Shown here one piece after another: positions 31,101-57,999 of a DNA stretch of 64,000 bases. Position numbers and translations under genes: made by a program. The DNA is from Fontisphaera persica (GTDB taxonomy: Bacteria > Verrucomicrobiota > Verrucomicrobiia > Limisphaerales > Fontisphaeraceae): the NCBI RefSeq assembly GCF_024832785.1, contig NZ_CP116615.1, forward strand, positions 4,154,001 through 4,218,000. Direction: 5' to 3'. Numbering within the stretch: the first letter of the stretch is position 1; the number at the start of each line of letters is the position of its first letter. Under the pieces are notes generated by a model. That model saw nothing but the letters and a program-made list of their open reading frames with translations. It was not told the DNA's origin and did not search any database.

Positions 31101-34100
31101 TCATCCCCGATGACGACGCGCCGGTGAGCGTGTCCATCCATGAGACGGGCGTGCCAGCGTCGCATCTGGTCACGGTGTTTGAAGGCAACAGCGGCTACAC
31201 CACGGTGACGGTGCAGGTCTCGCTCTCGGCGGTGAGCGGGCACACGGTGAAGGTGAATTATGCCACCGCGCCGGGCACGGCAGTGGAGTCGGTGTACACG
31301 GCCGATGCGGGCGAGTCGGCGGATTACCAGGCGCTGCCGCTGGAGAGCCTGCCGCCGGAGCAGCGGACGCTGGTGTTTGCGCCGGGCGAGACCACCAAAC
31401 TCTTGACGGTGCGCGTGTTTGGAGATTTGCGGCCGGAGGGCGACGAGTATTTCTTCCTGAATTTGTTGAACGCGGAAAACGCCAATGTAGCGGCCAACGC
31501 GCTGGTGGAGAGCAATCACTTCAGCATCGTCATCACCGACGATGACCTGGCCGCGCCGGTGGATTTGCCGCCATGGAGCCTTTTCTTCTCGGACACCGCT
31601 TACACAGTGCAGGAGCCGGCGAGCGGCGTGGCCTACGCGACCATCACGGTGCACCGGATGCCGGGCAGTCCGCAGGCGGTGGCGGTGCTGACCACCACGC
31701 CGGGCACAGCCACGGCGGGGCTGGATTACAGCGCGACGCGCCGGTATCTGGTTTATTTCCGCGGCAATGAAGTTACCCGCACCCTGGAAATCCCGATTTA
31801 TAGCGACGGCACGAGCGAAGGGGACGAGACGGTGCTGCTGTCGCTCAACAATCCGACGGGCGGGGCGGTGAATGCGGCGCCGGATGCGGCGGTGCTGATG
31901 ATTCGCGACGCGGATTTGCCGAAGGTGTCAGTCCTTGCGCCGGTGCTGGGCATCTTCATGGACCCGGTGACAGGCCTGTTCACCATTGTGCGCGGGGTGC
32001 AGGAGGGCACGGGGGCGGGCGCGACGACCGCCACCTTCACCATCCAGTTGGACAACCCGGCGCCGCCCGGCGGAGTGTTTGTGGATTGGACGACGGTGAG
32101 CAGCACGGCGCGGGCGGGGCAGGACTTTACGGCGGCAAGCGGGACGGCGTTCATTGCGGCGGGCGGCACGCAGACGACGGTGAGCGTGCCGATTACGCGG
32201 GATGCGAATCCCGAGCTGACGGAGCGCTTTGGGGTGCGGTTGAGCAATCCGGTGCGGGCCACGCTGGCGGAGCGCACCTACATCACGGCCTGCCCGATAT
32301 ACGATGATGACCTGCAAACGGTCACGGGCATGGTGTTCTATGACCGGAATGGCAACGGCTTCATGGATTTGGGCGAGGGCGGCATTGAGGACGTGAGCGT
32401 GACGCTGACCTGGCTGCAGAATGGCATCCATCAGCAGCAGACGGTGAAGACCAATGCCGCCGGCCAGTACAGCCTGCCAGTGGCGCTGGGGCCGGTGACG
32501 GTGGCGGTGGATGGCACGACGGTGAAGTCGCCCTATCAAAAGGCGCTGGGGCCGCTCTCGCTGCTGCTGTGGTCGGGTGAGTATTACACCACCACGGAAA
32601 ATGAGGTGCAGACGGCGCCGTTCGAGGGCGTGGTGGGCATCTCGCCGTTTGCGCCGGTGGGTTACAAGAACAGCTTCAGCCTCACGCTGCCCGAGCAGGC
32701 CAAAGAGGTGGGCCGCGGCGGCACTGATGACACACTGTTTGGCGGGCCGGGCAATGACTTCCTCGACGCGGGCGCCGGGGATGACCATGTGGTGGCCGGG
32801 CACTGGCAGACTGCCACCGACACCAACATGCCGGTGAACCAGGGCGCCTACAATGCCACCGTGGTGGTGGTGACGTCGGCCACGAATCTGCAAACGGTGT
32901 ACGGCCTGCCGGCGGGGGTCACGCTGCATCCGATTTATGATGAAGGCCCCATTTTCTCGGTGACGCCGGAGAATTACCCGGGGGTCATTAGCGGCCAAAT
33001 CTGGCTGGATAACAACCTCAACAACATCCGGGATGCGGGGGATGTCCTCTATACCGGCGGCGTGGTGGTGACGTTGTATGACGCGGCGGGCAATCCGGTG
33101 AACGCGATTTACACCACCACCGGCACGTACAGCTTCACCAATCTATATTTGCGCGCGGGCGACCCGTTGTCCTCCAGCACGTATGTGGTGGAATTTGAGC
33201 TGCCGGACGGCTACCGGTTTGTGGACCCGAATGTGGGCGACGCCAATCCGGCGCTGGACCAGTCCTCCAGCGACAGCGACGCCGAGTTTGTGAGCCGGAC
33301 GCGGGCCTTCACCATCACCGGCATCAATCCCACCAAGACGACCGTGGGCGCCGGGCTGGCGCCGGCCAGCCAGTATGCGGCGGGCGCCACGTACCAGTTT
33401 GTGCAGAACACCTTCAGCGTTTCGGAGCGGGTGCCCGGGTACATTGACATCACGGTCATCCGCTCCTACTCCTTCACGCCGGGCGTGGTGGTGGTGGAGA
33501 CCGCCGACGGCACCGGCGCCAAGGCCGCGCTGGCGCAGCCGGCGGCCACGCGCAATTACACCGCCACCTCGGCCATTCTGGTGTTCAACGTGGGCGAGAC
33601 CGAGCGCACGGTGCGGATTCCGATTCACAACCGCAACCTGGGCTTCAATGAATTCCGCTGGTTCTCGCTCGCGCTCAATGACGCGACTGGCCGGCCGTAC
33701 GACACGGCCACGGTGTACATTGTGGGCGACGGCAACCCCACAGTGACCGACGACGACGTGGTGCTGGGCGGCGAGGATTGGGACATTCTGCTGGGCGACT
33801 CGGGCAACATCCCCGGTTACGCCGTGGTGCATGAATTTGCAAACATTCACCTGCCGCAGTACCTGGGCAACCTGCGGTTCACCGGCGGGCCGGGGCATGA
33901 CTGGGTGGATGCGGCGATAGGCGCGGATTACGTGAACGGCCAGTTGGGCAATGACATTCTGGCGGGGGGCGACGGGGTGGACATTGTGCTGGGCGGTCTG
34001 GGCAACGACCAGATTACCGTGGGGCAGGGCGATGACACGATTCGCGGCGACCACGGGCGCGACACGGTGATTTCGACGCGGTCGGTGCCCGGCATCACGC

Positions 34101-37100
34101 TCACGCCTGCGGCCTTGACCCATGAGCGGCTGGAGCTGGGCAGCTACGTGCCGTTGAACGTGCACACCATGCTGGATGTGTTTGAGGTGGCGCGGCTCAC
34201 GGGCGATGCGGAGCCGAACCGGTTTGTCATCCAAAACTGGGCGCAGGCGGCCTTCATCGCGGGCGGCGGCGGGCAGGACAGCCTGTGGGTCACGCACGAC
34301 ACCAACATGATTTTGAAAGATGCCACGCCGGTGGAGCGGCTCTACTGGCTGCTGGTGGCGGGCTTTGCCAAGGATGCGTCCATCAGCCTGCCCAACGGGC
34401 AAACTTATCACCTGGCCAGCCTGGAGCAGGTCACCCTCACCGGCGGCTCGCTGGCCAACACCTTCGACGCCTCCGGTTACTCGCGGGCGGTGACGTTTGT
34501 GGCCACCCCGGGCAACGACACGTTCATCGGCGGCACGGCGGACGACACCTTCCAGTTCGCGGCAGATTCGCCGCTGCACACGATAACAATTCGCGGCAAC
34601 GGCGGGAGCGACACGCTGGACTTCAGCCAGACGGTGGCGGGGGTGACGGTGGATTTGGCCGTGGTGGGCGCGGCGCAGACCGTCAACCCCAACCTCAGCC
34701 TGGTGTTGCAGGATGCACTGGAAAAGGTGACGGGCGGCAAAGGTGACGACTTCCTCTACGGCAACGCGCTGGACAACGTGCTGCTGGGCGGTCCGGGCAA
34801 CGACTGGCTGGAGGGCCGCGACGGGAGCGAGACGTATGTGTTTGACACGGACGAGGCTTGGGGCCAGGAAACCATCGTGGAGGCCCTGGGCGCGCCGGGG
34901 CTGGACGTGTTGGACTTCTCGGGCACGGCGACGCGGCGCATCGAGGTGAATCTGGGCGTGCTGGGGGTGTATCAGACGGTGAATGACCACCTGCAAATCC
35001 GCTTCTTTAATGAGGGACTCGAGGAGGTGCGCGGCGGCGCGCTGAATGATGTAATTCGCGGCAATGGCAACAACAACACCCTCTACGGCGGGGCGGGCGA
35101 AGATTTGCTGGATGGCAAGGGCGGCGATGACGTGCTGGATGGCGGGCCGGGCAATGACGAATTGGACGGCGGCGAAGGCCAGGACACCATCAATGAAACA
35201 GCCAACACAAACTTCACCCTGACCAACAACCGGCTCACACGCGGCACGGGCGAGACGGACATTCTGCGGAGCATTGAAGTGGCCAACCTGACCGGCGGCG
35301 CGGGGGCCAACACCTTCACCCTGACCGGTTGGACGGGCCGCGGCAGTGTGCGCGGCGGCGGGGGGCTGGATGCGATTGTCTGGGCGGCGGATGCCGACTT
35401 CACCGTCAGCGATGCGGTGCTTACGATGTCGCTGGCTGCGGGACCGATGAACCTGACGAGCATCGAGCAGGTCCTCCTCACCGGCGGGCCGGGCAATAAT
35501 ACCTTGGACGCCACCAATTTCTCCGGCGCGGCCACGTTGTCGGGCAAGGAGGGCAACGACATATTGCGCGGCGGCAGCGGAGTCAACACCCTGCTGGGCG
35601 GGCCGGGCAATGACGTGTTGACCGGCAGCCGCGGCAACGATGTGCTGGACGGCGGCGAGGGGACGGACATTTTGACCGAGGACCTCATTGGCGCGGTGTG
35701 GGAGGTGATTTTTGTGGTGCAGAACGACCGCCTGTTCATCACGCAAGTGGATCCGTCGCCGGCGGCGGCCAGCATTTATGAGGTGGACACGCTGGTGGAC
35801 CTGGAGGCGGTGACCCTTACCGGCAGCCCGCAGAATGACATCTTTGACTTGAGCGGCTGGCTGCGCGGGCCGGTGGTGATTGACGGCGGCTGGGGTGATG
35901 ACCGCGTTCAGGTGCTGGCCACCGCGCCGTCCACTCCCGGGCCGGCGGGCGTGACCGTGACCCTCACCAACACGGGCATTGCCTTCACCGGCAGCACGGC
36001 CACCATCAACTTTGTCTCCATTGAACAGGCCAACATCACCGGCACGGAGCGCAACGACACCTTCAATGCCACGGCTTTCACCGGCATTGCGTGGCTGTAT
36101 GGCCTGGGCGGCGATGACGTCTTCCTGGATGGCCCCGGCCCGACCTGGCTGGAGGGCGGCGACGGCAGCGACCGGTTTGTCTTCACCCAAAACGGGGCGG
36201 TGCTGAATGACTTTAATGTCGTGCTGGGCGGCGCCGGCGTGGACACGCTGGACTTCTCAGCTTTCACCCTGCCGGTGAATGTGAATCTGGGGCTGTTGAT
36301 GAACATCCAGAACGTCACGCCGGGCGAGCTGCAACTCTATTTCCGGGCGGAGGATTTGGAGAATGTGCTGGGCGGCGCCGGCGTGGACACCCTCACCGGC
36401 AATGCGCTGGACAATGAAATCAGCGGCGGCGCGGGGGCGGACACCCTGGCCGGTGGCGGGGGCGTGGATACGCTGGTGGAAACGGCCGATGCCAACATGG
36501 TGCTGACCAACACCAACCTCACCATCGGGGCCACGGTGGACATTCTCAGCGGCTTCCAGCGGGCGCGGCTGACGGGTGGCGCGGGGAATAACACGCTGGA
36601 CGCCTCCGGTTACAGCGGCTCGGCCACGTTGAGGGGGATGGGCGGCGATGACACGCTGCTGGGCGGCAGCGGGCGCGACACGTTGCTGGGCGGCGCGGGC
36701 AATGATCTGCTGCGGGGCGGCGCCGGCAATGACACGTATGTCTTTGATGTGGATGAAGTGCTGGGCCAGGACACGGTGGACGAACTGCCCGGCCCGGCGG
36801 GGGGCATAGACATGCTGGACTTCTCGCCCACCACCACCACGGGCGTGCGGGTGAATCTTTCGGTGACCGGCTCGCAATTGGTGCACGCCACGAATTTAGC
36901 GCTCATTCTGACCAGCGATGTGGCGCTGGAATACATTCGCGGCGGTGACGGCGATGACCGGTTGATTGGCAACGCGCTGGACAATGTCTTCTGGGGCGGC
37001 TTGGGCGCGGATGAGTTCAATGGCAACGGCGGCGTCTTCGACACGGTGTATGAGATGCGCGATGCCGACTTTGAAATCACCGACACCACCATGCGCATCG

Positions 37101-37531
37101 GCGCGGAAAACAATTGGATGACCAACATCCAGCGCGTGTATGTGGAGGGCGGAGAGGGCGACAACGTGCTGAATGCCACGGCCTACACGGGCATGGCGTG
37201 GCTGTACGGGCGCGGCGGCAATGACACCCTCTACGGGGGCAGCGGCAATGACCGGCTGTTTGGCGGGGACGGCGACGACGCGCTGCGCGGCAATGGCGGC
37301 GATGATTACCTGGCCGGTGGCGCGGGCAACGACGGGTACTGGTTTGACCTGAGCTTTGACCAGGGGGCAGATACGGTTGTCGAACTGACCGGCGAAGGAT
37401 TTGCGGACGTGGTCTGGGGCGCGGGCTTGAGTGGGCTGGTGGTGAATTTGCACACCACAACCACTCAGGTGGTGCACGCGCATCTGACTCTGACCTTGAT
37501 GTATGCCTCCACCGTGGAATATGCCTACTAA
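19154..37531 (+). CDS. Giant 6125-residue LEPR-XLL surface protein with Calx-beta, SdrD-B-like and RTX repeats
   Basis: One frame of 18.4 kb. Residues 10-23 (YSLEALEPRVLLSG) are the LEPR-XLL motif found at the N terminus of very large exported proteins of Verrucomicrobiota and Planctomycetota. Order of regions: beta-helix-like segment (about 155-283); tandem LPAGP modules (about 594-1376); flagellin IN-motif-like stretches; two duplicated FRIYANTNG/LRVRSNG modules (about 2105-2540); EF-hand-like loops (DSNGDGRL, DPNHDGKL, DINDDGKI); GGxGxD calcium-binding RTX block (3306-3496); SdrD-B-like domains near 3613, 4390 and 4613; five Calx-beta domains (3733-4386) and a sixth (4746-4864); then RTX modules to the end. 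Probably a calcium-dependent adhesin or matrix protein. Start: an in-frame stop lies at 19115 and no ATG precedes the motif, so TTG 19154 (AGGA five bases before) or GTG 19175 is used. The C terminus has no anchor and stops inside a repeat. Confidence 0.9.
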   Translation: MHRQRIAVTYSLEALEPRVLLSGDGLCPMAAPMLPAVQEPQAVEEVAFSPAQHGAEESSSSALFESTPGEIFAPSPVTESSPAEVLDTTDVGDDAGASVAVEVAGETVTESTAATPISSTDEMPTGASGETLSWTVLQMVDTLRASNGPPEASTGTIHLTPESGLNLNGGTLELADGQVLSGNGSIQGGIAGNGIFRPGNSPGHLTVDNFNPGADAVTEIEIEGLAQGVSYDWIEVTGAANLNGTLKIIFNPQGGYTPALGDTFNVITWNNYSGQFAQWLGTVAIPGQPTWALKPEYLPTGLRLTIVQTPNLSAGLDTQILNVLQQLGEVADRLDTFGSFAQSLPFIGSNVGSLANMGSAFLNGLRARMMSVLSGIPTVAQVTAGIQGWDNTTFGGFTFRVKGILAHYGVTSSDPIWWDLQVELEPTAINATLQNILGGVFGAVFSGSAPTVTVNSSAFLDFSFGRDGSVFVGVDAVGARASVNASGLGGFGFTFNTPVGTQTLSASGGTVAFAAGVTATPDASVLTGGRITTTTLTNLANGTTPVGNAFNVSTTGTLNAAFPLTGTLSFLGFSLTGAYVVRVQSPNIFNQAPELSVEVNSTLTVMGQNLSGSFTLKNTGTETILQASNVSFQVGSGSSRVLSVQNGAGNLLILNSGLAGTLALDFSTGPAIPNVGLSATGLQLAFNTTTAAVPDINGVAVALPAGPYFRVSGQGTLTLSTPAASLSGDFLFEPRDADGNPGNGYEQTVAAVANLGFQFSDGTNPLLTVSQGQGAMVFTSAGVMGSLSAQLALNVAGVNLSGTYGVTLNNTASAFNATFNVNGNPVTLNLPAGPYLRVSASSATLTVQGFGVTGSFVFERKQTGGGATVVTVAGTGMALSFGASASNILNVSNGSGAFILSQAGLAGTATATVGVNATGVSVGGTFTVRINDRNTAVSETVEVGGTNVTINLPAGPYVQVQGQGVTLTVLGVGLQGDFTFEQKNTLSGSRVITVTAANVNFNFGTSLLTATHGSGFFMMTDAGLMGEGQITVGINAFGTGFSHTFQWSFNNTSAAFNQAVGNPTALNLPAGPFNKLDSGPTPISINIPIGSSTQSLSGRFILTLVQGSPGYVTLAASNVSATLGAGPVSLTVSGGQGAFLLTAAGGLAGEVKVASATLGNAGLLGLNAQNLKLRLNNTGGNVGDPNPVVVPISDNPAENVSIQFIGPYYHNFLAVSGTAEITGLMGGITLGGNFVIETARLDTNGDSVLEDVFKLGATNLQLRVQMGSATVLSFDRGTGALILNGAGLAAEADLQFESGLVGLSGTMQLKLNTTGANVNTTVNTPSGSRVVNVPAGTNVQVNVDGHLHVGSFALPFQLSVRVAGSTIEFRRLSNNELLLTVDSGTIIPGPALTSLANFDFAKASPFEWVMLLNQLGDWFESFAGSSLFQVEIPFTGGKTLGDAFNWAQLYLDTIYKYFVSVELQSRSVTETSTHTGALAGATLKLQLGTEPVVTLTVTDTVGDPNSRTGTELVTLLQNAIAAQGLAGRLEARLNREKKVVIALREDEVAKNTTLNLVDADAAISSLGFGPGDGNTATNDQTGVLTERFSTEEFFVALADLFNDGLLNNNSGIIYNPMQRVYTYTVNRQLTYNTQQLFGSPTLPFNFNLALGPIAGASLTGALQFNVQVGFNLTLGFDLAAAEVPRVFTSSTVPTPSHGRITADAHFGIYLNDVLPSGSGTFAQWFPLTLTQAATADNTSIQMLADDLNNVLAGAAYGSGTLGDVLIFQKAGNGVALSARDTQLGIINRVVVITPRNDPFGTEIGFGAEVQDLDGSAVTTHDQILVAAATAPIKGLFVENAQLSASLAVNTTAAGIAGSLRFGFVEISTSGGAFGTLAYDGVTPAPITATLRLEHQTTGERRFYISELMNNTSSNNISNLVPAFSFNGSFLARLNNITVSGLGFSIPLGSNPQVAVWIPDIKHLTYNANPYDPASNNKGIFVTYPDLSTLTNFTSLNFTTIVRALNGIADQLSQLSAFSFLDEPLPFVNLSVNDMLDYAQKFADLIDGLSSSSARDTLQNTLAELKRQIDTLFHLNPNVLTLSLDHNGVAPASLVTSGGTASQPSALVIDYSGFNNGFRIYANTNGTALNNSRVVVVGDSTITNGTAKAEWNATSKVLTLKIQPGRTTANAILQAISEAGSHGSPWLAQLTANDNPAGSNTGAGTITLTALKFAFNFSTGYANSLPFQLDLQQLVSQLAGNHPTVRAFLELATTLVQIQGSGQLTVSASASLILEFGLDVSTPGTARPFFYETTRIEMLAKVAGTNISLEASLGSVFGIFIKNGRVTLDQDGDPDTGAAQGDRGAIFQVGLKDSNGDGRLYLDENWLSTDFIRLQLEGGVSAQLPIFAPFESTPLSGSDDTNGDGYPDNYLVVEAPDLVRFFLSEAVSTEAVGAEKVVKFAGLHNDLRVRSNGSITNYRIVFTDTLSGNNASATYNAATKTLTVQMDAGVTTAVTARNAIQSASGAAGAFAPTALTTDDDGQASSTSNTGAGTLEKVFLVTPDFSTLFDGLELCDVIANSIGPILDGLDKFLGWVQDGLNGVVYNVNLPLLGSGLKGAADFIGDFRNGLLRELREEVDAAGGNGITALENAIKKALWNSLGPGGLNWLVNYETGQPLDVAAGFSQLDVRLDCDTGLVVNIRLAKTIALLDTTGNPIDFNIGVPGFGLEVDGNVVLSLGFDWKFGFGVDLTNGFYFNTSAPASHPELKIFFRAEIPGLHAAGQLLFLQLDVMDDADSPSFFEGAFEVDLRDPNHDGKLTMAELFSSGTQFGDIISAKLGAEADVNLDLIASFGGNTAFPRVLADFHLGWEADTQQGSQDPEIEFTNIRLDLGTFLSDFLGPILKEIRKVTEPIQPIIDIVTARLPVLSDLAGQTITLLDLAEAFGLLEPSTMDFIRDVISVVELINDLEGLGSGTILIPFGSFRLLEGNDGRRSAIQALEPLAARAMEDIATMAAAATGPGASSTYTQKVSGFASDVGSLSNFKIPVFDNPAELFNLFTGEPVRLVEWRMPTFRFKFTYTQKIPIYPPLYAQFGGTIGADINVGFGYDTYGIQKFISSEDKNFLDILDGFYVLDFDAQGREQPEVRLYGELFAGATIDLAIVKAGVNGGLGFEVKFDLNDINDDGKIRVSELVANAQQDPRCIFDIEGRIYLFLEAFLKVDLFFFSIDKTWRFAEITLFSIEITCPEPVLAEKSGNDLYLNIGSRAGRRLEVDTTDGAETFIVKHTGGAAGSETLEVQWGNWRQTFENVARVVVPDAGQGDDYLDFRGVLSEVEVHGGAGHDTIYLGDGANSEAYGDAGNDQIYASTNAGVTGVVIYGGDGNDLLVAGPVAIRIYGGGGNDTLTGSPEDDELYGDDGSGTAADGNDVIDGLAGNDLLRGGRGNDTLRGGDGDDWLRGDDGNDQLYGSIGHDVLDGGGGDDKLYGGDGNDLLLGGPGSDWANGHGGIDLLIGDDDPVTALAINNLPVTAANLAAIRAAIAAIPTAGVVVQNVPGGGSSINGHDLLIGGGNVDVLFGGPGNDFLYGGNFMNQGETSVIEEDHNDFFDGGPGDDTMFGDDAMGRTGDRDTGIAIRSSIFFDLNKNGVRDAGETGFGGVTVTLYRNDGLLIGSEVTEVDGTFAFTGLDPDRYYLTFSPVTGLTFITQFGGGAAGAEAAGNDSDVYPSGPLVGRTPDFQLTFDETERSIAAGYEGDPLVSVAPVTVTEGNNGQTLVTLLVTLSGPQRMAVTLNYRTEDGNDAMFPQRNATAASGDYAPVSGTLTFAAGQTQQAITIAVLGDLMYEEHEQFRVIFSNPSAGIKLPTLPETTVLVTLSNDDPVPQIAIADFVPASTLLNNGTRVYTVPENVTAEFIVSLSNPSTYAVTVWYLVDSAYDCGCDPNPARPFPLYPDGDYVQPAPAMITFQPGETQKKVTVTLRQDALDEPDESFYIDLFNPTYARIGDGRAYGIIPDDDAPVSVSIHETGVPASHLVTVFEGNSGYTTVTVQVSLSAVSGHTVKVNYATAPGTAVESVYTADAGESADYQALPLESLPPEQRTLVFAPGETTKLLTVRVFGDLRPEGDEYFFLNLLNAENANVAANALVESNHFSIVITDDDLAAPVDLPPWSLFFSDTAYTVQEPASGVAYATITVHRMPGSPQAVAVLTTTPGTATAGLDYSATRRYLVYFRGNEVTRTLEIPIYSDGTSEGDETVLLSLNNPTGGAVNAAPDAAVLMIRDADLPKVSVLAPVLGIFMDPVTGLFTIVRGVQEGTGAGATTATFTIQLDNPAPPGGVFVDWTTVSSTARAGQDFTAASGTAFIAAGGTQTTVSVPITRDANPELTERFGVRLSNPVRATLAERTYITACPIYDDDLQTVTGMVFYDRNGNGFMDLGEGGIEDVSVTLTWLQNGIHQQQTVKTNAAGQYSLPVALGPVTVAVDGTTVKSPYQKALGPLSLLLWSGEYYTTTENEVQTAPFEGVVGISPFAPVGYKNSFSLTLPEQAKEVGRGGTDDTLFGGPGNDFLDAGAGDDHVVAGHWQTATDTNMPVNQGAYNATVVVVTSATNLQTVYGLPAGVTLHPIYDEGPIFSVTPENYPGVISGQIWLDNNLNNIRDAGDVLYTGGVVVTLYDAAGNPVNAIYTTTGTYSFTNLYLRAGDPLSSSTYVVEFELPDGYRFVDPNVGDANPALDQSSSDSDAEFVSRTRAFTITGINPTKTTVGAGLAPASQYAAGATYQFVQNTFSVSERVPGYIDITVIRSYSFTPGVVVVETADGTGAKAALAQPAATRNYTATSAILVFNVGETERTVRIPIHNRNLGFNEFRWFSLALNDATGRPYDTATVYIVGDGNPTVTDDDVVLGGEDWDILLGDSGNIPGYAVVHEFANIHLPQYLGNLRFTGGPGHDWVDAAIGADYVNGQLGNDILAGGDGVDIVLGGLGNDQITVGQGDDTIRGDHGRDTVISTRSVPGITLTPAALTHERLELGSYVPLNVHTMLDVFEVARLTGDAEPNRFVIQNWAQAAFIAGGGGQDSLWVTHDTNMILKDATPVERLYWLLVAGFAKDASISLPNGQTYHLASLEQVTLTGGSLANTFDASGYSRAVTFVATPGNDTFIGGTADDTFQFAADSPLHTITIRGNGGSDTLDFSQTVAGVTVDLAVVGAAQTVNPNLSLVLQDALEKVTGGKGDDFLYGNALDNVLLGGPGNDWLEGRDGSETYVFDTDEAWGQETIVEALGAPGLDVLDFSGTATRRIEVNLGVLGVYQTVNDHLQIRFFNEGLEEVRGGALNDVIRGNGNNNTLYGGAGEDLLDGKGGDDVLDGGPGNDELDGGEGQDTINETANTNFTLTNNRLTRGTGETDILRSIEVANLTGGAGANTFTLTGWTGRGSVRGGGGLDAIVWAADADFTVSDAVLTMSLAAGPMNLTSIEQVLLTGGPGNNTLDATNFSGAATLSGKEGNDILRGGSGVNTLLGGPGNDVLTGSRGNDVLDGGEGTDILTEDLIGAVWEVIFVVQNDRLFITQVDPSPAAASIYEVDTLVDLEAVTLTGSPQNDIFDLSGWLRGPVVIDGGWGDDRVQVLATAPSTPGPAGVTVTLTNTGIAFTGSTATINFVSIEQANITGTERNDTFNATAFTGIAWLYGLGGDDVFLDGPGPTWLEGGDGSDRFVFTQNGAVLNDFNVVLGGAGVDTLDFSAFTLPVNVNLGLLMNIQNVTPGELQLYFRAEDLENVLGGAGVDTLTGNALDNEISGGAGADTLAGGGGVDTLVETADANMVLTNTNLTIGATVDILSGFQRARLTGGAGNNTLDASGYSGSATLRGMGGDDTLLGGSGRDTLLGGAGNDLLRGGAGNDTYVFDVDEVLGQDTVDELPGPAGGIDMLDFSPTTTTGVRVNLSVTGSQLVHATNLALILTSDVALEYIRGGDGDDRLIGNALDNVFWGGLGADEFNGNGGVFDTVYEMRDADFEITDTTMRIGAENNWMTNIQRVYVEGGEGDNVLNATAYTGMAWLYGRGGNDTLYGGSGNDRLFGGDGDDALRGNGGDDYLAGGAGNDGYWFDLSFDQGADTVVELTGEGFADVVWGAGLSGLVVNLHTTTTQVVHAHLTLTLMYASTVEYAY
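20935..23290 (+). repeat. Tandem LPAGP modules inside the giant gene
   Basis: At least five beta-rich modules of about 115-127 residues. The DNA CTGCCGGCGGGGCCGT recurs at 21260, 21641, 22007 and 22355 (spacings 381, 366 and 348 bp), with a diverged form at 23150. Each is followed by an LSGxFxF-type strand and a GxGxxxLxxxGLxG strand. Unequal spacing shows module divergence rather than recent amplification. Confidence 0.8.
25470..26760 (+). repeat. Duplicated module pair inside the giant gene
   Basis: Two copies of a roughly 100-residue module, about 25470-25790 and 26455-26760, share the pattern xRxxxNG...NxRxVxxDT...ATYNAATKxLTxxxxxGxTTAxxxxxAIxxASG and end in SNTGAGT. An intervening segment of about 670 bp carries EF-hand-like acidic loops. 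Confidence 0.65.
29070..29640 (+). repeat. RTX-type GGxGxD nonapeptide block
   Basis: A run of GGAGHDTIYLGDG, GGDGNDLLVAG, GGGGNDTLTGS, GGRGNDTLRGG, GGDGDDWLRGD and GGGGDDKLYGG repeats encoding a calcium-binding parallel beta-roll. Further RTX blocks lie at about 32710-32790 and, in modular form, 33890-37330. Confidence 0.9.
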
Positions 37532-51825: not shown

Positions 51826-52764
51826 ATGGTATCTCTGAAAGCCAATCCTATGTTACACCCAGATCATGAACCCTATTTCAAGTACACGAAAAGGCAGCGA
51901 GTAGATCTTGCTATTCACACATTGGAAGGAATCTTAAAAGGCATCGCCATTGATGGACAGATACAATCACCCGAGTGCCGGGAATTATCCAATTGGTATA
52001 ATGAACACCGCCACTTGATTGCCTACCATCCTTTCTCGGAGCTGGTACCTGTCGTTCAGTCGGCGTTGGCAGATGGCGTGCTCAACACGGAAGAGCGCGC
52101 CGACCTTTTATGGCTATGCAAAAACATGTCTGTGGGCAGCATTTTTTATGATGAGATTACAAATGACATTCAAGTTTTACATGGCATTCTCCATGGCATC
52201 TTGGCAGACGATGTGGTCACGGAGGAGGAAACTAAAGCCCTGAGTGAATGGATTGACACCAATTCACATCTGAAAGGAACTTACCCATTCGATGAAATTG
52301 ACAGCCTGCTAACGATGGTGCTCCAGGACGGTAAGCTCGATGACAAGGAAAAATCATTGCTCAAAGATTTTTTTGAGGACTTCGTCTCATATTCCAATGC
52401 AAAGCGCTCTGAACAGGCTAAATCTGAAAAGGTCAACAAAAAGGAAATGCGGTTAACCGGCATTTGCGCTGTGTGTCCCGTGATTGAGTTTCCTAATCAT
52501 GTTTTCTGTTTCACCGGCGCCTCTCGGAGGGCTACAAGGCATGATATTGCGTACCAGGTTGAAAGCCGCAGAGGTGTGTTCACTAACACCGTTACTAAAA
52601 ATCTCGATTACCTCGTTATTGGAGCTGCCGGCAATCCTTGCTGGGCATATGGGTGCTATGGCCGCAAAGTGGAACAAGCTATAAAATATCGCCGTGAAGG
52701 CAGCAAATTGATTCTGGTTCATGAAAACGATTTTTGGGATGCGATTGAGGACACAAAAGGTTGA
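51826..52764 (+). CDS. TerB-like domain plus BRCT-domain protein
   Basis: 312 residues. The N-terminal two thirds (about 20-190) are helical and acidic with TerB-like repeats: GILKGIAIDGQIQSPECREL, VVQSALADGVLNTEERADLL, ILHGILADDVVTEEETKALS and LLTMVLQDGKLDDKEKSLLK. The C-terminal part (about 220-310) is a BRCT domain like that of bacterial NAD-dependent ligase: HVFCFTGASRRATRHDIAYQ, GVFTNTVTKNLDYLVIGAAG and KYRREGSKLILVHENDFWDA. BRCT domains bind DNA ends or phosphoproteins. Base composition is clearly more AT-rich than the neighbours, a sign of recent transfer. It converges on the polymerase fusion (155 bp apart). No strong ribosome-binding site; ATG 51850 is an alternative start. Confidence 0.75.
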   Translation: MVSLKANPMLHPDHEPYFKYTKRQRVDLAIHTLEGILKGIAIDGQIQSPECRELSNWYNEHRHLIAYHPFSELVPVVQSALADGVLNTEERADLLWLCKNMSVGSIFYDEITNDIQVLHGILHGILADDVVTEEETKALSEWIDTNSHLKGTYPFDEIDSLLTMVLQDGKLDDKEKSLLKDFFEDFVSYSNAKRSEQAKSEKVNKKEMRLTGICAVCPVIEFPNHVFCFTGASRRATRHDIAYQVESRRGVFTNTVTKNLDYLVIGAAGNPCWAYGCYGRKVEQAIKYRREGSKLILVHENDFWDAIEDTKG

Positions 52765-52918: not shown

Positions 52919-55900
52919 TTATTCCTGACGTTGGGTCGGTTTTTCCCGCGGTTTGCCGGCGCGGTGGATGCGGAGGGTGAAGCCGCGGCCATTTTCAAAG
53001 GGTTCGACGGTGGCGGTGACTTCCAGCACAGGGTAGCGGACGGTGGCCAGGCCGTAGCTGCGGTAGGTGGAGGCAAAGAGTTCGGTTTCCACCATGCCCG
53101 TCCAGTCCGCCAGGGTCAGGAATTTCATCGGTTCGCCGGTGATTTGATGGAAGAGCCGTTGCTCGATGACGAGGCCGCAGGTGACGACTTGCTGTCCCAC
53201 AAACTCCCCCAGGCGCGCCACCGGGCAATAAGTCTCCCAGGCCACCTGGTCAAAGAGTTCGAGCGGATGGCCGCTGACGGGGTAGCCCAACAGTTCGGCC
53301 TCCCATTCCAGGCGCTGGCGGCGGGTGGGTTCCTGAAGGGGGGCGTCGCTCAGGCGCTCCGCTCCGGGCGGGGGGAGGAGCCAGCCCTGGCCGCCGCCTG
53401 CCTCCGCGTGGCCAAAGGCGCGCCGCAGGAGCTGCGCCTCCCAAAACAGGCGGGTGCGGCTCAGGCCGAATTCATCCAGGGCGCCGGCGCGGATGAGCAA
53501 TTCCATTTCCTCCGGCGCGGGGCCAACGCGGGCGTAAAAATCGCGCAGGGAGGTGAAGGCGCCCTGTTGGCGCGCGGCCAGGAGCCGGTCGCGGGTGGCC
53601 TGGGTCAGGCCTTTAATTTGTGTTATGGGCACACGAATGGCGCGAGGGGGAGCGGTGGAAACGCCGGAAGCCGGCCGCGGGCGCACCACCTGGAAAGCCG
53701 GCCCGGGCTCATTGAGGGTGGGCGGCAGGAGGGGGAGGCCCAGGCGGTGGCATTCGAGCACATAGACGAGGGGGTCGTAAAAGCCCTTGCCGTGGGTGAG
53801 CACGGCCGCCATGAACTCCGCCGGGTAATACCGCTTGAGCCACGCGGCGACGTACGCCTCCACCGCGTAAGCCGTCGAATGCGCCTTGCAAAAGGCGTAT
53901 CCGGCAAAACCGGTGACCAGGTCCCACACCTCGCGGATGACGGCTTCGGGGCGCCCGCGGGCGCGGGCGGCGGCGAAGAATTCGCGGCCAATTTCCTGGA
54001 TGGTCTCCAACTTTTCCTTGCCCAGGGCACGGCGGAGCTGGTCGGCGCGGCCGGGGGGCAGGCCGGCAAAGGCCTCGCAGATTTGCAGAACGTGCTCCTC
54101 ATACACCACCAGGCCGAAGGTGCTCCGGAGGCACGGCTCCAGCGAGGGATGGGGATAGCTGGCCGGTTCCAACCCCTGGTAACGGCGGCAGAACTTTTGT
54201 TTTTTTTGTTCGTTGGCCGCGCCGGGGCGGATGACGCTGACCACGGCCACCAGGCCGTCTATTTCGCGGATGTGGCTCTGCCGGCAGAGGCCCACCATGG
54301 CGGGTGACTCGATGTGATGCACGGCGCGGGCCTGGCCGCTGGCAATGAGGTCCCACACGGCGGGGTCATCCCAGGGGGCAAGGTCCGGCATCCCACCATC
54401 CAGCGGCGCCAACCCCTTTGTTTCCTCCGCTGGTGGAGGGGGGAGGGGGCCTTTTTGCGGCTCCTCTTTTCTGCGGATTTCCGCCAGCGCATCGCGCATC
54501 ACCGCCAGGCCGCCTTGGGCCAGGATGTCGAGTTTCACCAGGCCGAGGGCCTCGACGGCGTCCATGTCGTAGTGCGTGGCGGGCCAGCCCTTGTGGGTGC
54601 GGAAGGTGGGAGTGAGTTCGTGGATGGGCTGGCGCGAGAGCACCACGCCGCAGGGGTGCATCTTGGGATAACGCGGGAAGCCATCCAGAAATTCCGCCAT
54701 TTCCAGGGCCGAGCGGTAGGGTTCTTCCTCCAGCGGCAAATCGCGGCAGTCGGGGCTTTCGCGCAGCAGTTGGACGAGGCCGCGGGCGCGGCTCCAGGGG
54801 AAATGCTCGGTGAAGCGCCGCACTTGATGCTCGGAAAGGCCGAGCGCCTTGCCGACATCGGCCACGGCGCCGCGGGCCTGGTAGGTGGAGAAGCCGCCCA
54901 CCACCGCGCAATGCTCCGGGCCGTATTTCTCGAAGAGCAGGGCGATGACGTCATCCTTGCGGTCATGGGGAAAGTCCACGTCAATGTCCGGCAGTTTGTG
55001 CATGGCCATGCGCTCGCGGTTGAGGAAACGGCGGAAGTAGAGGTCGAAGCGCAGCGGGCACACGTTGCTGATGCCCAGACAATAGCAGACCAGGGAATCG
55101 GCGGCGCTGCCGCGGGTGAGCCAGTCCATGCCGCGGCGGCGGCATTCGCGCAGCAAATCCCACACCACCAGAAAGTAGTCCTCGTAGCCCACCTCGCCGA
55201 TGATGGCCAGCTCCTCCTCGAGTTGGGGCCGCACCTGCGTCCAGCGGTCAGGATAACGGCGGCGCGCGCCCTCCAGCACCAGCCGCCGCAAAAAGGCGCG
55301 CGAGGGGGAGCCGTCCGGGGCCTGAAACACCGGGAATTGCGGCGGGCCAAAGGGAAACCGGAAGCCCCGGCAGCGCTCGGCAATTTCGGCATTGCCGGCC
55401 AGCACGCGGGGTGGCAGGCGGAATTGCTGGCGCAGCTCGGCGGGCGCGCGCCAGTGCAACTCGCCGGGCAGTTTGGCGGGGTGCTCCTGCCGCAGGAGGG
55501 TGAGGGTGCGGATGGCCTCCAACACTTCAAATTTCCAGCGGTCTGGCGGCGTGGCGTAATGCACCGGCTGTCCCCAGGCGAGGGGTAAATGCGCGGGGAA
55601 ACGGGCGGCTTCTTCCGGCGCGCAGACCAGGCCGTAGAAACGACCGGGAAACCATGCCGCCAGGCGCGCCTCTGCGCCGAGGGCCAGCAGGCCGTCCGTG
55701 CCTTCCTCCAACTGCCGCAGCGACAACTGGCCGGGCGGCAGGCTGAGCCAGCGGCAGAGACGGGCATAGCCCCGGGCGTTTTCCACGAATAACACCAGGG
55801 GGCGGCCGTCGAGGAGGACTTCCGTGCCCACCAGCGGTTGCAAGCCGGCGGCCTGGGCTTGCTGCACAAACTCCGGCGCGCCGTGCAAATGACCCAAATC

Positions 55901-57298
55901 GGCCAGCCCGATGGCGGGCAATTCATGCTGTTGCGCCAGGCGGACGATGTCGGCAATGGCCAGGGTGGAAGCAAGGAACGAATAATAACTGCGCACGCGC
56001 AGCGGGATGACGGGGACGCTGGCCGGCCGCCGCGCGGCCGCAGGCTCGCGCCATCTCTTGCCCTGGCCCTCACGCGTTGGAGGGGGGAGGGGGAGGTTCC
56101 TGGAGTTATCGGGTGAAATATCCGTTTGCGTTTTGCGTTCCTCCAGCAGCAGGTCATGGCCGCGCATGACCACCTTGCAGCCGAACTTTTCGCGCAAGGC
56201 ATCCACGGCGGCGGCCAGGCGGCGGCGCGCCTCGGATTGGCCGTCTGCCGGCAGCAGTTCCAGCTCGCCGGTGATGCGCCCGTCATAGAGGTGGCTCAAC
56301 CGCAGCGAGACCATGCGGAGGCTCACCCGGCGGCGCCAGGCGCGTTTGAGGAGCAGGCGGAGGCGTCCATACACCTCGGTTTCCACGCACACCGGCTCGG
56401 GCAGGCTTTCGCTGCATTGGTCTTCGGCCATGTCGTTGTAACGCACTTTGACCGTGAGGGTGCGAGCCGCCTGGCCGGCCGCGCGCAATTTGGCGAAGAG
56501 TTCATCCGCCATGCGGCGCAGGACCGCCTGGGCGTATTCCTCGTCGGTGAGGTCCTGCGCAAAGGTCTCTTGTTGCCCGAAAGATTTGGCGGGGGCACGG
56601 CTGGGCACGACGGGTCGGTCATCGAGACCGCGGGCAAAGCGGTGGAGCGTGCCGGCGCCGCTGCCCACCAGCACTTCCAGCAATTCCGGGGGAGTGGCGG
56701 CGATTTGGCCCACCCGCGCCAGGCCGGCGGCGTTCAGCCGCTCGCCGAGCTTGGGGCCTACGCCCGGCAGCCAGCGGTTGGGCAGCGGACACAAAAACTC
56801 GGCTTCCCGGCCGGGCGGGACTTCCAGCAGGGCGGCGGGTTTGTTCAACTTGGAGGCCACCTGGCTGACGAGCTTGTTGGCGGCCACGCCTTCGCTGACG
56901 GAGATTTTGAGCGATTGGCGGATGGCCTCCCGCAGGCGGTGGGCCACCTCGAAAGGGGGGCGGCGCGCGCCGGTGACGTCGAGGTATCCTTCGTCAATCG
57001 AGGCCACCTCCACGTCCGGGGTGAAGTCGTAGGCGTAGGAAAACATCCATTGGGAAAATCGCTCGTATTTCTCGAAGTCGCCCGGCAGGAGAATCAAGGC
57101 GGGGCACAACCGCCGGGCCAGGGCGGCGGGCATGGGGGTGTAGATGCCGAAGCGCCGGGCCTCATAGGAGGCGGAGGCGATGATGCCGCGCTTTTCGCCG
57201 CCCACAGCCACCGGGCGCCCGCGCAGGCGGGGGTCCGCCGCCTGCTCCACCGAGGCAAAGAAGGCATCTGCGTCGAGGTGAATGATTTTGGCGGGCAT
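52919..57298 (-). CDS. DinB (Y-family) - DnaE2-like (C-family) DNA polymerase fusion
   Basis: 1459 residues from ATG 57298 (a TTG precedes it). Residues 1-390 are a full DinB-type polymerase: IIHLDADAFFASVEQ (Asp9, steric-gate Phe14), ASIDEGYLDVTG (Asp102-Glu103), helix-hairpin-helix LPGVGPKLGERLNAAGL and little finger KSFGQQETFAQDLTDEEYAQ. After a linker of about 40 residues, 430-1459 form a DnaE2-like polymerase: a short PHP domain with lost metal ligands (LRVRSYYSF, LADLGHLHG), LTRGSAADSLVCYCLGISNV, palm aspartates in KLPDIDVDFPHDRKDD (771, 773) and LVKLDILAQGG (924), GYAFCKAHSTAYAVEAYVAA, and a C-terminal OB fold (about 1365-1450). A role in SOS translesion synthesis is likely, since lexA lies 54 bp upstream on the same strand. 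No clear clamp-binding motif was found. Confidence 0.9.
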   Translation of the reverse strand: MPAKIIHLDADAFFASVEQAADPRLRGRPVAVGGEKRGIIASASYEARRFGIYTPMPAALARRLCPALILLPGDFEKYERFSQWMFSYAYDFTPDVEVASIDEGYLDVTGARRPPFEVAHRLREAIRQSLKISVSEGVAANKLVSQVASKLNKPAALLEVPPGREAEFLCPLPNRWLPGVGPKLGERLNAAGLARVGQIAATPPELLEVLVGSGAGTLHRFARGLDDRPVVPSRAPAKSFGQQETFAQDLTDEEYAQAVLRRMADELFAKLRAAGQAARTLTVKVRYNDMAEDQCSESLPEPVCVETEVYGRLRLLLKRAWRRRVSLRMVSLRLSHLYDGRITGELELLPADGQSEARRRLAAAVDALREKFGCKVVMRGHDLLLEERKTQTDISPDNSRNLPLPPPTREGQGKRWREPAAARRPASVPVIPLRVRSYYSFLASTLAIADIVRLAQQHELPAIGLADLGHLHGAPEFVQQAQAAGLQPLVGTEVLLDGRPLVLFVENARGYARLCRWLSLPPGQLSLRQLEEGTDGLLALGAEARLAAWFPGRFYGLVCAPEEAARFPAHLPLAWGQPVHYATPPDRWKFEVLEAIRTLTLLRQEHPAKLPGELHWRAPAELRQQFRLPPRVLAGNAEIAERCRGFRFPFGPPQFPVFQAPDGSPSRAFLRRLVLEGARRRYPDRWTQVRPQLEEELAIIGEVGYEDYFLVVWDLLRECRRRGMDWLTRGSAADSLVCYCLGISNVCPLRFDLYFRRFLNRERMAMHKLPDIDVDFPHDRKDDVIALLFEKYGPEHCAVVGGFSTYQARGAVADVGKALGLSEHQVRRFTEHFPWSRARGLVQLLRESPDCRDLPLEEEPYRSALEMAEFLDGFPRYPKMHPCGVVLSRQPIHELTPTFRTHKGWPATHYDMDAVEALGLVKLDILAQGGLAVMRDALAEIRRKEEPQKGPLPPPPAEETKGLAPLDGGMPDLAPWDDPAVWDLIASGQARAVHHIESPAMVGLCRQSHIREIDGLVAVVSVIRPGAANEQKKQKFCRRYQGLEPASYPHPSLEPCLRSTFGLVVYEEHVLQICEAFAGLPPGRADQLRRALGKEKLETIQEIGREFFAAARARGRPEAVIREVWDLVTGFAGYAFCKAHSTAYAVEAYVAAWLKRYYPAEFMAAVLTHGKGFYDPLVYVLECHRLGLPLLPPTLNEPGPAFQVVRPRPASGVSTAPPRAIRVPITQIKGLTQATRDRLLAARQQGAFTSLRDFYARVGPAPEEMELLIRAGALDEFGLSRTRLFWEAQLLRRAFGHAEAGGGQGWLLPPPGAERLSDAPLQEPTRRQRLEWEAELLGYPVSGHPLELFDQVAWETYCPVARLGEFVGQQVVTCGLVIEQRLFHQITGEPMKFLTLADWTGMVETELFASTYRSYGLATVRYPVLEVTATVEPFENGRGFTLRIHRAGKPREKPTQRQE
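54423..54451 (-). repeat. Repeat C fragment inside the DnaE2-like part
   Basis: Shares GGAGGGGGGAGGGGG with the linker copy at 56055. It encodes the proline-rich GPLPPPPAEETKG (about residue 950), an insertion between the third palm aspartate and the following conserved segment, where DnaE2 proteins normally have only a short loop. Confidence 0.55.
56055..56098 (-). repeat. Repeat C copy encoding the polymerase linker
   Basis: Plus strand CTCTTGCCCTGGCCCTCACG then CGTTGGAGGGGGGAGGGGGA. It matches intergenic copies at 42121 (CCCTGACCCTC...GGGGGGAGAGGGA) and 9687. In the gene's frame it reads NLPLPPPTREGQGKRW; the intergenic copy at 9687 read in one minus-strand frame gives the similar FPLPKGEGQGKGRE. 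Confidence 0.7.
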
Positions 57299-57352: not shown

Positions 57353-57976
57353 TTATCCTGCTTTGCCGCGCACCAGTCCCACCATCACCCCCTGGATGAC
57401 CAGCTCGGCGGCGGGGATGAGTTTGGGGTATTGGGGATTTTCGGCCTTCAAATAGGGGCGCCCGCGCTCCACCACGTACGTTTTGAGGGTGCTTTCGTTG
57501 TCAATCAGCGCCGCGACGACATCGCCGGGTCGGGGGGGCCGGCCGTGCTCCAGAATCACAATGTCGCCGTCAATGATGTGCCGCCCAATCATGGAGTCGC
57601 CCCGCACCCGCAGGGCAAACGTGCGCGCGGTGGGTTGAATGCCCAGTGTCCGCACGTCCACCGACACGCATCCTTCGGCCTCCTGCTGCCGGTCGTCGGC
57701 AAAACCGGCGGGGATGCTCCCAAAGAGCGGGATGTCCACCACCGCCTGCCGGAGGCGCGCCAGGGGCGAGGCCAGCCGCCAGGAGCGCGCCTTGCCCGGC
57801 ACATGGGCCAGCCAGCCTTTGCGCTCCAGGGCCGCCACGTGACAGGCGGCGGCGCGCGGGCTGCGGAAGCCGAAATGCGCGGCGATTTCGCGCAGGGTGG
57901 GCATGGGTTCGCCCGCCTGCTGCCGGGCTTGGAGGAGGGCGAGGACCCGTGCTTGTTGGTCGGTCAAGCGTTTCAT
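57353..57976 (-). CDS. lexA: SOS repressor LexA
   Basis: 207 residues. The N-terminal winged helix (about 1-65; LTDQQARVLALLQARQQAGE, TLREIAAHFGFRSPRAAACH) binds DNA, and the C-terminal S24 peptidase-like domain is complete: cleavage site in FGSIPAGF (Ala90-Gly91), catalytic Ser128 in VRGDSMIG and Lys165 in ESTLKTYVV. It should therefore be a RecA-coprotease-responsive SOS repressor. The polymerase fusion follows 54 bp downstream, making a two-gene damage-response operon. A 20-bp palindrome ends three bases before the start codon, consistent with autorepression. No other lexA is in the window, so it could be a cassette-specific paralogue or the only one. Confidence 0.94.
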   Translation of the reverse strand: MKRLTDQQARVLALLQARQQAGEPMPTLREIAAHFGFRSPRAAACHVAALERKGWLAHVPGKARSWRLASPLARLRQAVVDIPLFGSIPAGFADDRQQEAEGCVSVDVRTLGIQPTARTFALRVRGDSMIGRHIIDGDIVILEHGRPPRPGDVVAALIDNESTLKTYVVERGRPYLKAENPQYPKLIPAAELVIQGVMVGLVRGKAG

Positions 57977-57979
57977 AGT

Positions 57980-57999
57980 TACTATACAAATGTATAGTA
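57980..57999. promoter_or_regulatory. Candidate LexA operator (20-bp palindrome)
   Basis: TACTATACAAATGTATAGTA: 9-bp perfect arms around AA, three bases upstream of the lexA ATG (minus strand). It overlaps a possible -10 (TATACA, 57991-57996) with TTGAAT at 58012-58017 as -35 (15-bp spacer, weak). No Shine-Dalgarno fits between operator and ATG, so the transcript may be nearly leaderless. The motif differs from the Escherichia CTGTN8ACAG and Bacillus CGAAC-N4-GTTCG boxes. Confidence 0.7.

What the first reader, a model, noticed from the sequence alone, without database searches (positions are those of the whole stretch)
52919..57298. Two DNA polymerases of different families fused in one LexA-linked polypeptide
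A single uninterrupted frame encodes a complete DinB-type Y-family polymerase (Asp9, Asp102-Glu103, steric-gate Phe14, little finger) followed by a complete DnaE2-like C-family polymerase (palm Asp771, Asp773, Asp924). lexA precedes it in the same operon. In the known SOS mutasome (lexA-imuA-imuB-dnaE2) the partners are separate and ImuB is an inactive Y-family adaptor. Here the Y-family half looks active and the link is covalent, so inserter and extender polymerase could hand over the primer within one molecule. I do not know of a described DinB-DnaE fusion; novelty is my inference.
Basis: partly seen in the sequence, partly recalled or inferred. Interest (0 to 1): 0.92.

Follow-up and report, generated by a model that had tools for sequence, protein, structure and literature searches.

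The report
Two DNA polymerases fused in one
Many bacteria of one Verrucomicrobiota lineage make a single protein in which two different damage-copying DNA polymerases, both apparently active, are joined end to end, with the gene sitting behind that of the DNA-damage repressor LexA.

Summary
One frame (minus strand, ATG 57298 to stop 52919; 1,459 residues) encodes a Y-family polymerase, a RecA-NT-like motif, a variable linker and a C-family polymerase, 54 nt behind lexA. It is no assembly artefact: of 249 genomes of the order searched, 105 match it at E 1e-120 or better, and in 84 of these I read one open frame spanning both halves. Two genomes of the class outside the order also have fused frames. 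Catalytic acids of both halves are conserved in 43 aligned sequences. The C half groups with separate DnaE2B polymerases of Bacteroidota and Desulfosarcina; the tree fits one fusion and several later splits at the linker. lexA lies directly upstream in 48 of 54 fused frames; 44 of 59 lexA upstream regions carry a palindrome. Best reading: a one-chain form of the predicted PolY + DnaE2B + RecA mutasome, the Y half inserting and the DnaE2 half extending. Induction, RecA and clamp binding and hand-over are inferred. My searches listed no description of the fusion; one relevant paper was not held and supplements could not be opened.

The parts
52919..57298 (-). PolY-DnaE2B fusion gene, 1,459 codons plus stop
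   Evidence: one open frame; Pfam domains of both families; joined frame in 84 of 249 genomes of the order (table read by hand)
56249..57298 (-). Y-family (DinB-like) polymerase half, residues 1-350; catalytic D9, D102, E103; steric gate F14
   Evidence: IMS and IMS_C; conserved residues in 43 aligned sequences; the 50 Foldseek rows shown for residues 1-730 are Y-family structures
56153..56239 (-). RecA-NT-like motif, residues 354-382 (predicted RecA-binding helix and strand)
   Evidence: profile against 25 RecA N-termini of the order: hhalign P 2.8e-5, probability 74%; best place in the whole fused profile, E 0.0013, probability 18%
56009..56143 (-). variable, probably flexible linker, about residues 386-430
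   Evidence: 17-127 aa in 43 aligned sequences; dN/dS 0.69 against the genus-mate; pLDDT under 50 over most of it
55739..56002 (-). PHP domain with disrupted metal-binding motif (no proofreading expected)
   Evidence: Pfam PHP; HLHLHT and TDHG of the genome's own DnaE1 read PLRVRS and ADLG here
54518..55294 (-). C-family palm/NTPase region; catalytic D771, D773, D924
   Evidence: PF07733; residues conserved
53450..54379 (-). C-family fingers and helix-hairpin-helix region
   Evidence: PF17657 and PF14579
53375..53389 (-). QGWLL pentapeptide after the helix-hairpin-helix region, about where DnaE1 has its clamp-binding motif (placement recalled; clamp contact inferred)
   Evidence: Q-x-W-L in 20 of the 22 rows printed, of 43
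57353..57976 (-). lexA, upstream gene of the presumed operon; Ala90-Gly91, Ser128, Lys165
   Evidence: TIGR00498 above cut-off; only TIGR00498 match in the genome; residues (roles recalled)
57980..57999 (.). palindrome TACTATACATTTGTATAGTA before lexA, presumed LexA operator
   Evidence: 44 of 59 distinct lexA upstream regions carry an 18-bp palindrome with at most 1 mismatch, against 2.7% of shuffles; only match in the genome, control pattern 1 hit per strand

Best explanation
A one-chain SOS mutasome. LexA represses the lexA-polymerase operon through a palindromic operator. When RecA filaments form at stalled forks, LexA cleaves itself and the fusion is made. The Y-family half is recruited to RecA through its RecA-NT motif, and the DnaE2B half to the sliding clamp through a QxWL motif. 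The Y half inserts opposite the lesion. The flexible linker keeps the second active site at hand, so the non-proofreading DnaE2B half takes the distorted primer end and extends it before DnaE1 resumes. Seen here by sequence: two intact active sites in one conserved chain, lexA directly upstream, a conserved palindrome, a RecA-NT-like motif, a disrupted PHP site, low dN/dS in both catalytic halves, a tree that fits one fusion. Inferred: co-transcription, induction, LexA, RecA and clamp binding, division of labour, intramolecular hand-over.
For: Domains and residues. Conservation: 105 of 249 genomes of the order match at E 1e-120 or better, 84 with one frame over both halves (read by hand); fused frames in two genomes of the class outside the order. 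C half: fused proteins plus DnaE2B form one group, bootstrap 100 / SH-aLRT 99, and the fused clade is 100/100. lexA directly upstream in 48 of 54; palindrome in 44 of 59. RecA-NT. PHP disrupted. dN/dS 0.02-0.14 in the catalytic parts. Only PF00817 match in the genome and one of two PF07733 proteins, the other being DnaE1. The classical DnaE2 (NF004225) is found in 53 of 249 genomes; only 4 of these are among the 105, against 22 expected, as expected if the two fill the same role; relatedness was not corrected for.
Against: No expression or enzyme data. In 6 of the 105 genomes the halves lie apart, so covalent hand-over is not essential. The AlphaFold model of residues 1-730 has pTM 0.41, so the placement of the halves is undefined, and the RecA-NT segment itself lies largely in the low-confidence stretch. 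The RecA-NT match is moderate as a profile (74%, and 18% when searched over the whole protein) and absent for the single window sequence (E 2.1); its dN/dS is 0.55 over 36 codons. The operator pattern's reversed control also hit once per strand. The fusion scores far below the NCBIfam cut-off for DnaE2. Recent B. subtilis work reports no detected PolY2-RecA contact (PMC13335488, passages read).
Confidence: 0.55

Rival explanations
1. Adaptor model: as in ImuB-DnaE2, the Y half mainly targets the molecule (RecA, lesion) and most synthesis is done by the DnaE2B half; the Y active site is a minor activity.
For: The Y half carries the RecA-NT-like motif; ImuB, its counterpart in the known mutasome, is a targeting subunit (PMC11791113, abstract and introduction read).
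Against: The Y-family catalytic acids are identical in 43 of 43 aligned sequences and the steric gate is aromatic in all, whereas ImuB has lost its acids (PMC11791113); low dN over residues 1-350, 0.048.
Confidence: 0.22
2. The fusion only fixes stoichiometry and co-expression of two polymerases that act independently; no hand-over takes place.
For: Long variable linker; halves apart in 6 of the 105 genomes; in three annotated Bacteroidota plasmids dinB and dnaE are overlapping or 13-nt-apart separate genes.
Against: The single frame appears to have been kept since the base of the fused clade, in the order and beyond it, while the parts of an operon could have stayed separate.
Confidence: 0.2
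3. The chain is cut in the linker after synthesis, giving two ordinary polymerases.
For: The linker is low-confidence in the model and fast-evolving.
Against: I see no shared motif in the linkers of the 43 aligned sequences (by eye).
Confidence: 0.05
4. Assembly or sequencing artefact joining two neighbouring genes.
For: None found; read data not available.
Against: Joined frame in 84 of 249 genomes, 53 fused ORFs in fetched loci, single-contig genome.
Confidence: 0.01

Closest known systems
Putative DnaE2B-PolY-RecA module of Bacteroidetes (PMC6511836, PMC12926913)
   Same: active Y-family polymerase with RecA-NT motif plus DnaE2B, no ImuA or ImuB; the C half groups with DnaE2B of Bacteroidota plasmids
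   Different: separate genes there, one chain here; in PMC8565304 (passages read) Bacteroidetes dinB-polymerase III alpha operons are under non-canonical LexA-like repressors, here the neighbour is a TIGR00498 LexA
ImuA-ImuB-DnaE2 mutasome
   Same: Y-family partner with RecA-NT motif, DnaE2-type C-family polymerase with disrupted PHP, LexA-linked
   Different: ImuB is catalytically dead and carries ImuB-C; here the Y half is intact, no ImuB-C-sized stretch follows it in most homologues, and the C half is on the DnaE2B, not the DnaE2A, branch
lexA-DUF72-PolY-DnaE gene row on Desulfosarcina ovata plasmid Do28_1
   Same: lexA followed by a Y-family-related gene and a DnaE2B-like gene
   Different: separate genes; the Y partner is very divergent
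E. [quoted passage not shown]
   Same: Y-family polymerase tied to RecA through the RecA-NT motif, SOS-controlled
   Different: no C-family partner; UmuD' instead
B. subtilis PolY1/PolY2-PolA bipartite translesion synthesis (PMC13335488, passages read)
   Same: two-step idea: Y-family insertion, second polymerase extends
   Different: A-family partner, separate proteins

Membership tests
DnaE2 (error-prone C-family), DnaE2B branch | falls in the DnaE2 clade, apart from DnaE1 and DnaE3 | tested here: met
   tree rooted on DnaE3: DnaE2 clade SH-aLRT 100, DnaE2B side 99 (quick tree with a long-branch warning); careful tree rooted on DnaE1: fused + DnaE2B 100/99. The A and B labels of reference rows are mine, from gene context and the paper's description
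DnaE2 (error-prone C-family), DnaE2B branch | PHP active-site motif disrupted | tested here: met
   window PLRVRS and ADLG against HLHLHT and TDHG in its own DnaE1; some homologues keep HVHS in the first motif
DnaE2 (error-prone C-family), DnaE2B branch | NCBIfam PRK05672 cut-off for error-prone DnaE2 | tested here: not met
   497.5 bits against a cut-off of 939; DnaE1-type models score higher (607 and 559 bits); PRK05672 passes its cut-off in 50 of 249 genomes of the order. The tree, not this model, is my ground for the DnaE2 label
Active Y-family polymerase (DinB/PolY) | three catalytic acids and aromatic steric gate | tested here: met
   D, D, E in 43 of 43; F in 41, Y in 2
Active Y-family polymerase (DinB/PolY) | polymerase activity | not testable with these tools
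   needs enzyme assays
Putative DnaE2B-PolY-RecA module | active PolY with RecA-NT motif and a DnaE2B partner | tested here: met
   the RecA-NT match is moderate
Putative DnaE2B-PolY-RecA module | no ImuA and no ImuB in the genome | tested here: inconclusive
   one PF00817 match and one PF00154 match in the genome; a divergent ImuA or ImuB could escape these models
Putative DnaE2B-PolY-RecA module | physical complex with RecA | not testable with these tools
   no multimer modelling offered; needs pull-down
ImuA-ImuB-DnaE2 mutasome | catalytically inactive Y-family subunit | tested here: not met
   catalytic acids intact
ImuA-ImuB-DnaE2 mutasome | ImuB-C domain after the RecA-NT motif | tested here: inconclusive
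   only a 17-127 aa variable linker follows, 25 aa in the commonest case; no dedicated ImuB-C model was run
LexA/SOS-regulated operon | LexA homologue and conserved palindrome at the operon | tested here: met
   TIGR00498, palindrome in 44 of 59; LexA binding and co-transcription not tested

The most novel reading that the evidence does not exclude
A natural tandem polymerase: one SOS-induced polypeptide holds both the inserter (Y family) and the extender (DnaE2B) active sites plus its own RecA and clamp tethers, and carries out the whole lesion bypass by passing the primer from one active site to the other without leaving the molecule. In the window genome the only match to this LexA operator pattern lies at this operon, so the SOS response there may be little more than this switch.
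Probability: 0.4. Interest if true: 0.88.

Novelty: new variant of a known kind. Interest (0 to 1): 0.78.

Why it matters
How a translesion inserter gives the primer end to an extender is usually studied with separate proteins that find each other at the clamp (general knowledge). A chain in which nature has tied the two together makes the hand-over directly testable: mutate either site, vary the linker, or compare with the re-split versions found in sister genomes. The fusion is also independent (Rosetta-stone) support for the predicted PolY-DnaE2B complex of Bacteroidetes, which in the papers I saw rests on gene neighbourhood and modelling. It shows that a lineage seen here almost only through metagenome bins (all 48 loci are titled MAG) has its own form of a mutasome.

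Tried and rejected
Artefact: rejected. Linker as an inserted genomic repeat: the proline-rich linker looked like the translation of an interspersed repeat, but the 81-bp stretch occurs once in the genome; several homologues have linkers that look repeat-like, not followed up. C half as DnaE1: its best NCBIfam scores are to DnaE1-type models, but the trees put it with DnaE2. ImuB identity for the Y half: rejected by its catalytic residues. Phage or plasmid origin: no phage record of 50,697 has one place covering 80% of the protein. Among the 5,000 best plasmid records (limit reached) two have; the two top rows at 80% or more, Desulfosarcina ovata and Streptomyces cavourensis, are each two pieces under two annotated genes. 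Mutual exclusion with the classical DnaE2: 4 genomes with both against 22 expected; 5 genera with both against 13 expected; relatedness not corrected for, so supporting evidence only. Steps that failed: the tree step (too many threads); IQ-TREE timed out, so that tree carries FastTree-type supports and I rely; the RecA filter (empty), mended; structure of residues 1-1200. Residues 1-730 gave two folded parts and a low-confidence middle (mean pLDDT 75.6). Promoter-like consensus matches were at chance level.

Counting notes: the 84 of 105 was read by eye from the table (one open frame holding matches to both halves). G041 and G211 are ambiguous and not counted. The other 19 are contig-edge pieces, single halves, genomes whose match row was not listed, or halves lying apart (G066, G068, G074, G075, G076, G118). 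In G068 the C half, and in G066 the Y half, is broken by stops or frame changes, so four are clean splits. The 43-row alignment holds the window and 42 others from the 44 complete of 53 fused ORFs; one exact duplicate was dropped and near-duplicates were kept. The 59 lexA upstream regions come from all fetched loci with a LexA match of sufficient length, fused or split; L046, L107 and L129 were dropped beforehand. In some searches (40 and 39 rows) fused and reference rows were thinned by hand; the group lists were typed from the tables.

Full report
WHAT IS THERE. The frame is on the minus strand, from ATG 57298 to the stop at 52919-52921. It encodes 1,459 residues. Pfam finds a full Y-family polymerase (IMS, IMS_C), then PHP, C-family palm, fingers and HHH, in that order. 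phmmer against the PDB matches Pol III alpha over about 572-1443 and Pol IV over about 3-387. lexA ends 54 nt upstream on the same strand and scores above the TIGR00498 cut-off. The window lies in a 4.73-Mb single-contig genome without a name. The genome contigs matches are nearly all titled Verrucomicrobiota (for example Limisphaerales, Pedosphaera, Verrucomicrobia subdivision 3); some bear titles that read otherwise (Akkermansia muciniphila, itself a verrucomicrobium; one Kiritimatiellia; one Klebsiella pneumoniae), and all 48 are titled MAG.

IS THE JOIN REAL. Yes. One genome-contig scan gave 48 loci. Together with stretches from relatives, 53 open frames hold both halves, 44 of them complete. 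In a search of 249 genomes of the order at 80% completeness or more, 105 have a match at E 1e-120 or better (66 of the 154 that are at least 90% complete and at most 5% contaminated); I read 84 of the 105 as one open frame with both halves. In 387 genomes drawn from the whole phylum, 6 match at that threshold. One is the window genome. Two (G438, G589; same class, outside the order) have fused frames of 1,420 and 1,467 aa. One (G545) is in two contig pieces, the Y-bearing piece running into the C half. One (G255) has the two halves on different contigs. One (G516, 36% identity, C half only) I take for a DnaE1 but did not test.

BOTH HALVES LOOK ALIVE. Across 43 aligned sequences the Y catalytic acids are identical in all, and the steric gate is F in 41 and Y in 2. 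The first two C-family palm aspartates are identical in all; the third is identical in 42, with a gap in one row. Against its genus-mate (88% aa identity), dN/dS is 0.02 over residues 1-350 (but dS there is 2.1, saturated), 0.14, 0.05 and 0.08 over the three C-half segments, 0.55 over the 36-codon RecA-NT segment and 0.69 over the linker. The script gave numerical warnings, so these are rough. The PHP site is not intact, so proofreading is not expected.

THE MIDDLE. After the Y little finger, residues 354-382 resemble the N-terminal helix and strand of RecA. hhalign of the motif alignment against 25 RecA N-termini of the order gives P 2.8e-5, probability 74%. Over the whole fused profile this is the best place, with E 0.0013 but probability only 18%. 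One homologue (L045) is hit by the RecA-NT profile at 1.5e-6; the window protein alone is not (E 2.1). This is the RecA-NT motif that Timinskas and Venclovas described (PMC6511836, passages read), needed for ImuB-ImuA' binding (PMC11791113, abstract and introduction read). Then comes a linker of 17-127 aa with no shared sequence that I can see. In the AlphaFold model of residues 1-730, 340-368 and 370-426 have pLDDT under 50, so both the linker and most of the RecA-NT segment are low-confidence (a helix is drawn at 355-372); pTM is 0.41. The 50 Foldseek rows shown, of 210 at E 0.001 or better, are Y-family structures, at rmsd of 6.6-14.4 A. The C half carries a Q-x-W-L motif after the HHH region (20 of 22 rows printed, of 43), about where DnaE1 has its clamp motif (that placement is recalled, not tested). 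The corresponding Y-half site reads ELPL[DE] in many rows, which I judge a poor clamp motif. In the mycobacterial system the clamp motif is in ImuB and DnaE2 lacks one (PMC11791113).

ORIGIN. In the careful tree of 39 C-family proteins, rooted on DnaE1, the fused clade (100/100) has the separate-gene G255 protein as sister (100/99). Next to them stand the DnaE2B of Bacteroidota plasmids and Desulfosarcina (100/99). The canonical DnaE2 of the same order sits in the other branch with ImuAB-linked DnaE2 (100/100). A quick tree rooted on DnaE3 agrees, with a warning that long branches meet among the DnaE2B rows. In three annotated Bacteroidota plasmids dinB and dnaE are separate: overlapping in two records and 13 nt apart in the third. 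The tree groups the Y halves together (93, with the lone G033 Y protein as neighbour at 90) but does not resolve their deeper kin. Four genomes with halves apart (G066, G074, G075, G118) lie inside the fused clade; the tree needs 5 changes of the fused label, most simply one fusion and four later fissions. In three of the four printed split Y proteins the chain ends soon after the RecA-NT motif; the fourth (L096) has a longer tail. lexA stays with Y in 4 of the 5 split Y loci.

REGULATION. lexA is directly upstream (700 nt or less, same strand) in 48 of 54 distinct fused frames; one more is cut by a contig end, and five are not so placed (L104 has a lexA 3.9 kb upstream; L067 has only 808 nt of sequence there). 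Of 65 lexA upstream regions, 59 are distinct; 44 of these carry an 18-bp palindrome, consensus ACT(G/A)TNCA-TN-TGNA(C/T)AGT, with at most one mismatch between arms, 39 of them 17-25 nt before the projected start. In dinucleotide shuffles 2.7% do. The window's copy is perfect (57980-57999) and is the only match with up to two mismatches in the genome, though the reversed control pattern also hit once per strand. None of 7 recA stretches (the window genome's among them) has a match within three mismatches, nor do the 5 stretches around re-split C genes. The LexA has Ala90-Gly91, Ser128 and Lys165 at the places expected for self-cleavage (roles recalled) and is the only TIGR00498 match in the genome. 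Binding and co-transcription were not tested.

ROLE IN THE CELL. The fusion is the genome's only PF00817 match and one of two PF07733 matches, the other being DnaE1. There is one PF00154 (RecA) match. In the order, the classical DnaE2 (NF004225, E 1e-190 or better) is found in 53 of 249 genomes; only 4 of these (G051, G095, G215, G244) are among the 105 (22 expected; by genus 5 against 13). These figures ignore relatedness.

COMPARISON WITH WHAT IS KNOWN. A module of an active PolY, DnaE2 and presumably RecA was proposed for Bacteroidetes from gene neighbourhood (PMC6511836, passages) and modelled as a complex (PMC12926913; sections 6, 7, 10 and 22 and passages read). The 2026 survey used complete representative genomes and queries trimmed to polymerase domains. 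Its main text has no occurrence of 'fusion', and neither of its two uses of 'fused' is about PolY-DnaE. The passages seen in PMC3919608 and PMC3765255 do not mention such a fusion. The literature searches (20 of 26 listed; 4 of 4; 11 of 12; 11 of 11; 20 of 356; none found; 12 of 27) listed no paper whose title or abstract start reports it; most of those papers I did not open. Not excluded: supplements (none could be opened), unlisted papers, papers outside the library, and Erill et al. 2016 on the Verrucomicrobia LexA motif, which is not held.

VERDICT. Observation confirmed; interpretation supported, with the hand-over still a hypothesis. I class it as a new variant of a known kind: the composition was predicted before, while the one-chain architecture with two intact active sites from two polymerase families is, as far as I could search, undescribed.

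Noticed in passing
window 19154-37531 (+): A 6,125-aa open frame; its first 4,800 aa hold Calx-beta, SdrD_B-like and RTX calcium-binding repeats: probably a giant secreted or surface repeat protein.
   Followed up: partly
window 51826-52764 (+): Convergent neighbour of the fusion matches PHROG 3989 (unknown function) and, over its last 80 or so residues, a DNA-ligase family.
   Followed up: no
L100, L101 (G128); L102, L103 (G217); L063, L071 (MAG RYN_636): Some genomes carry two fusion copies; in G128 and G217 each copy has its own lexA.
   Followed up: no
L095 (G068), L180 and L093 (G066): In two genomes with halves apart one half looks broken (C half in G068, Y half in G066) while the other is intact; decay or MAG error.
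   Followed up: no
L076/L104 (1,800 aa), L056 (1,681 aa), L066 (1,621 aa): Some homologues are one to several hundred residues longer, apparently through inserts in the C half; their nature is unknown.
   Followed up: no
L098: 6184-9339: A second DinB-type gene lies directly upstream of lexA and the Y half in G126.
   Followed up: no
G033 C19 (L038: 6586-7785): A lone Y-family gene, 48% identical to the Y half and next to it in the tree, with no lexA match in the 14-kb stretch fetched.
   Followed up: partly
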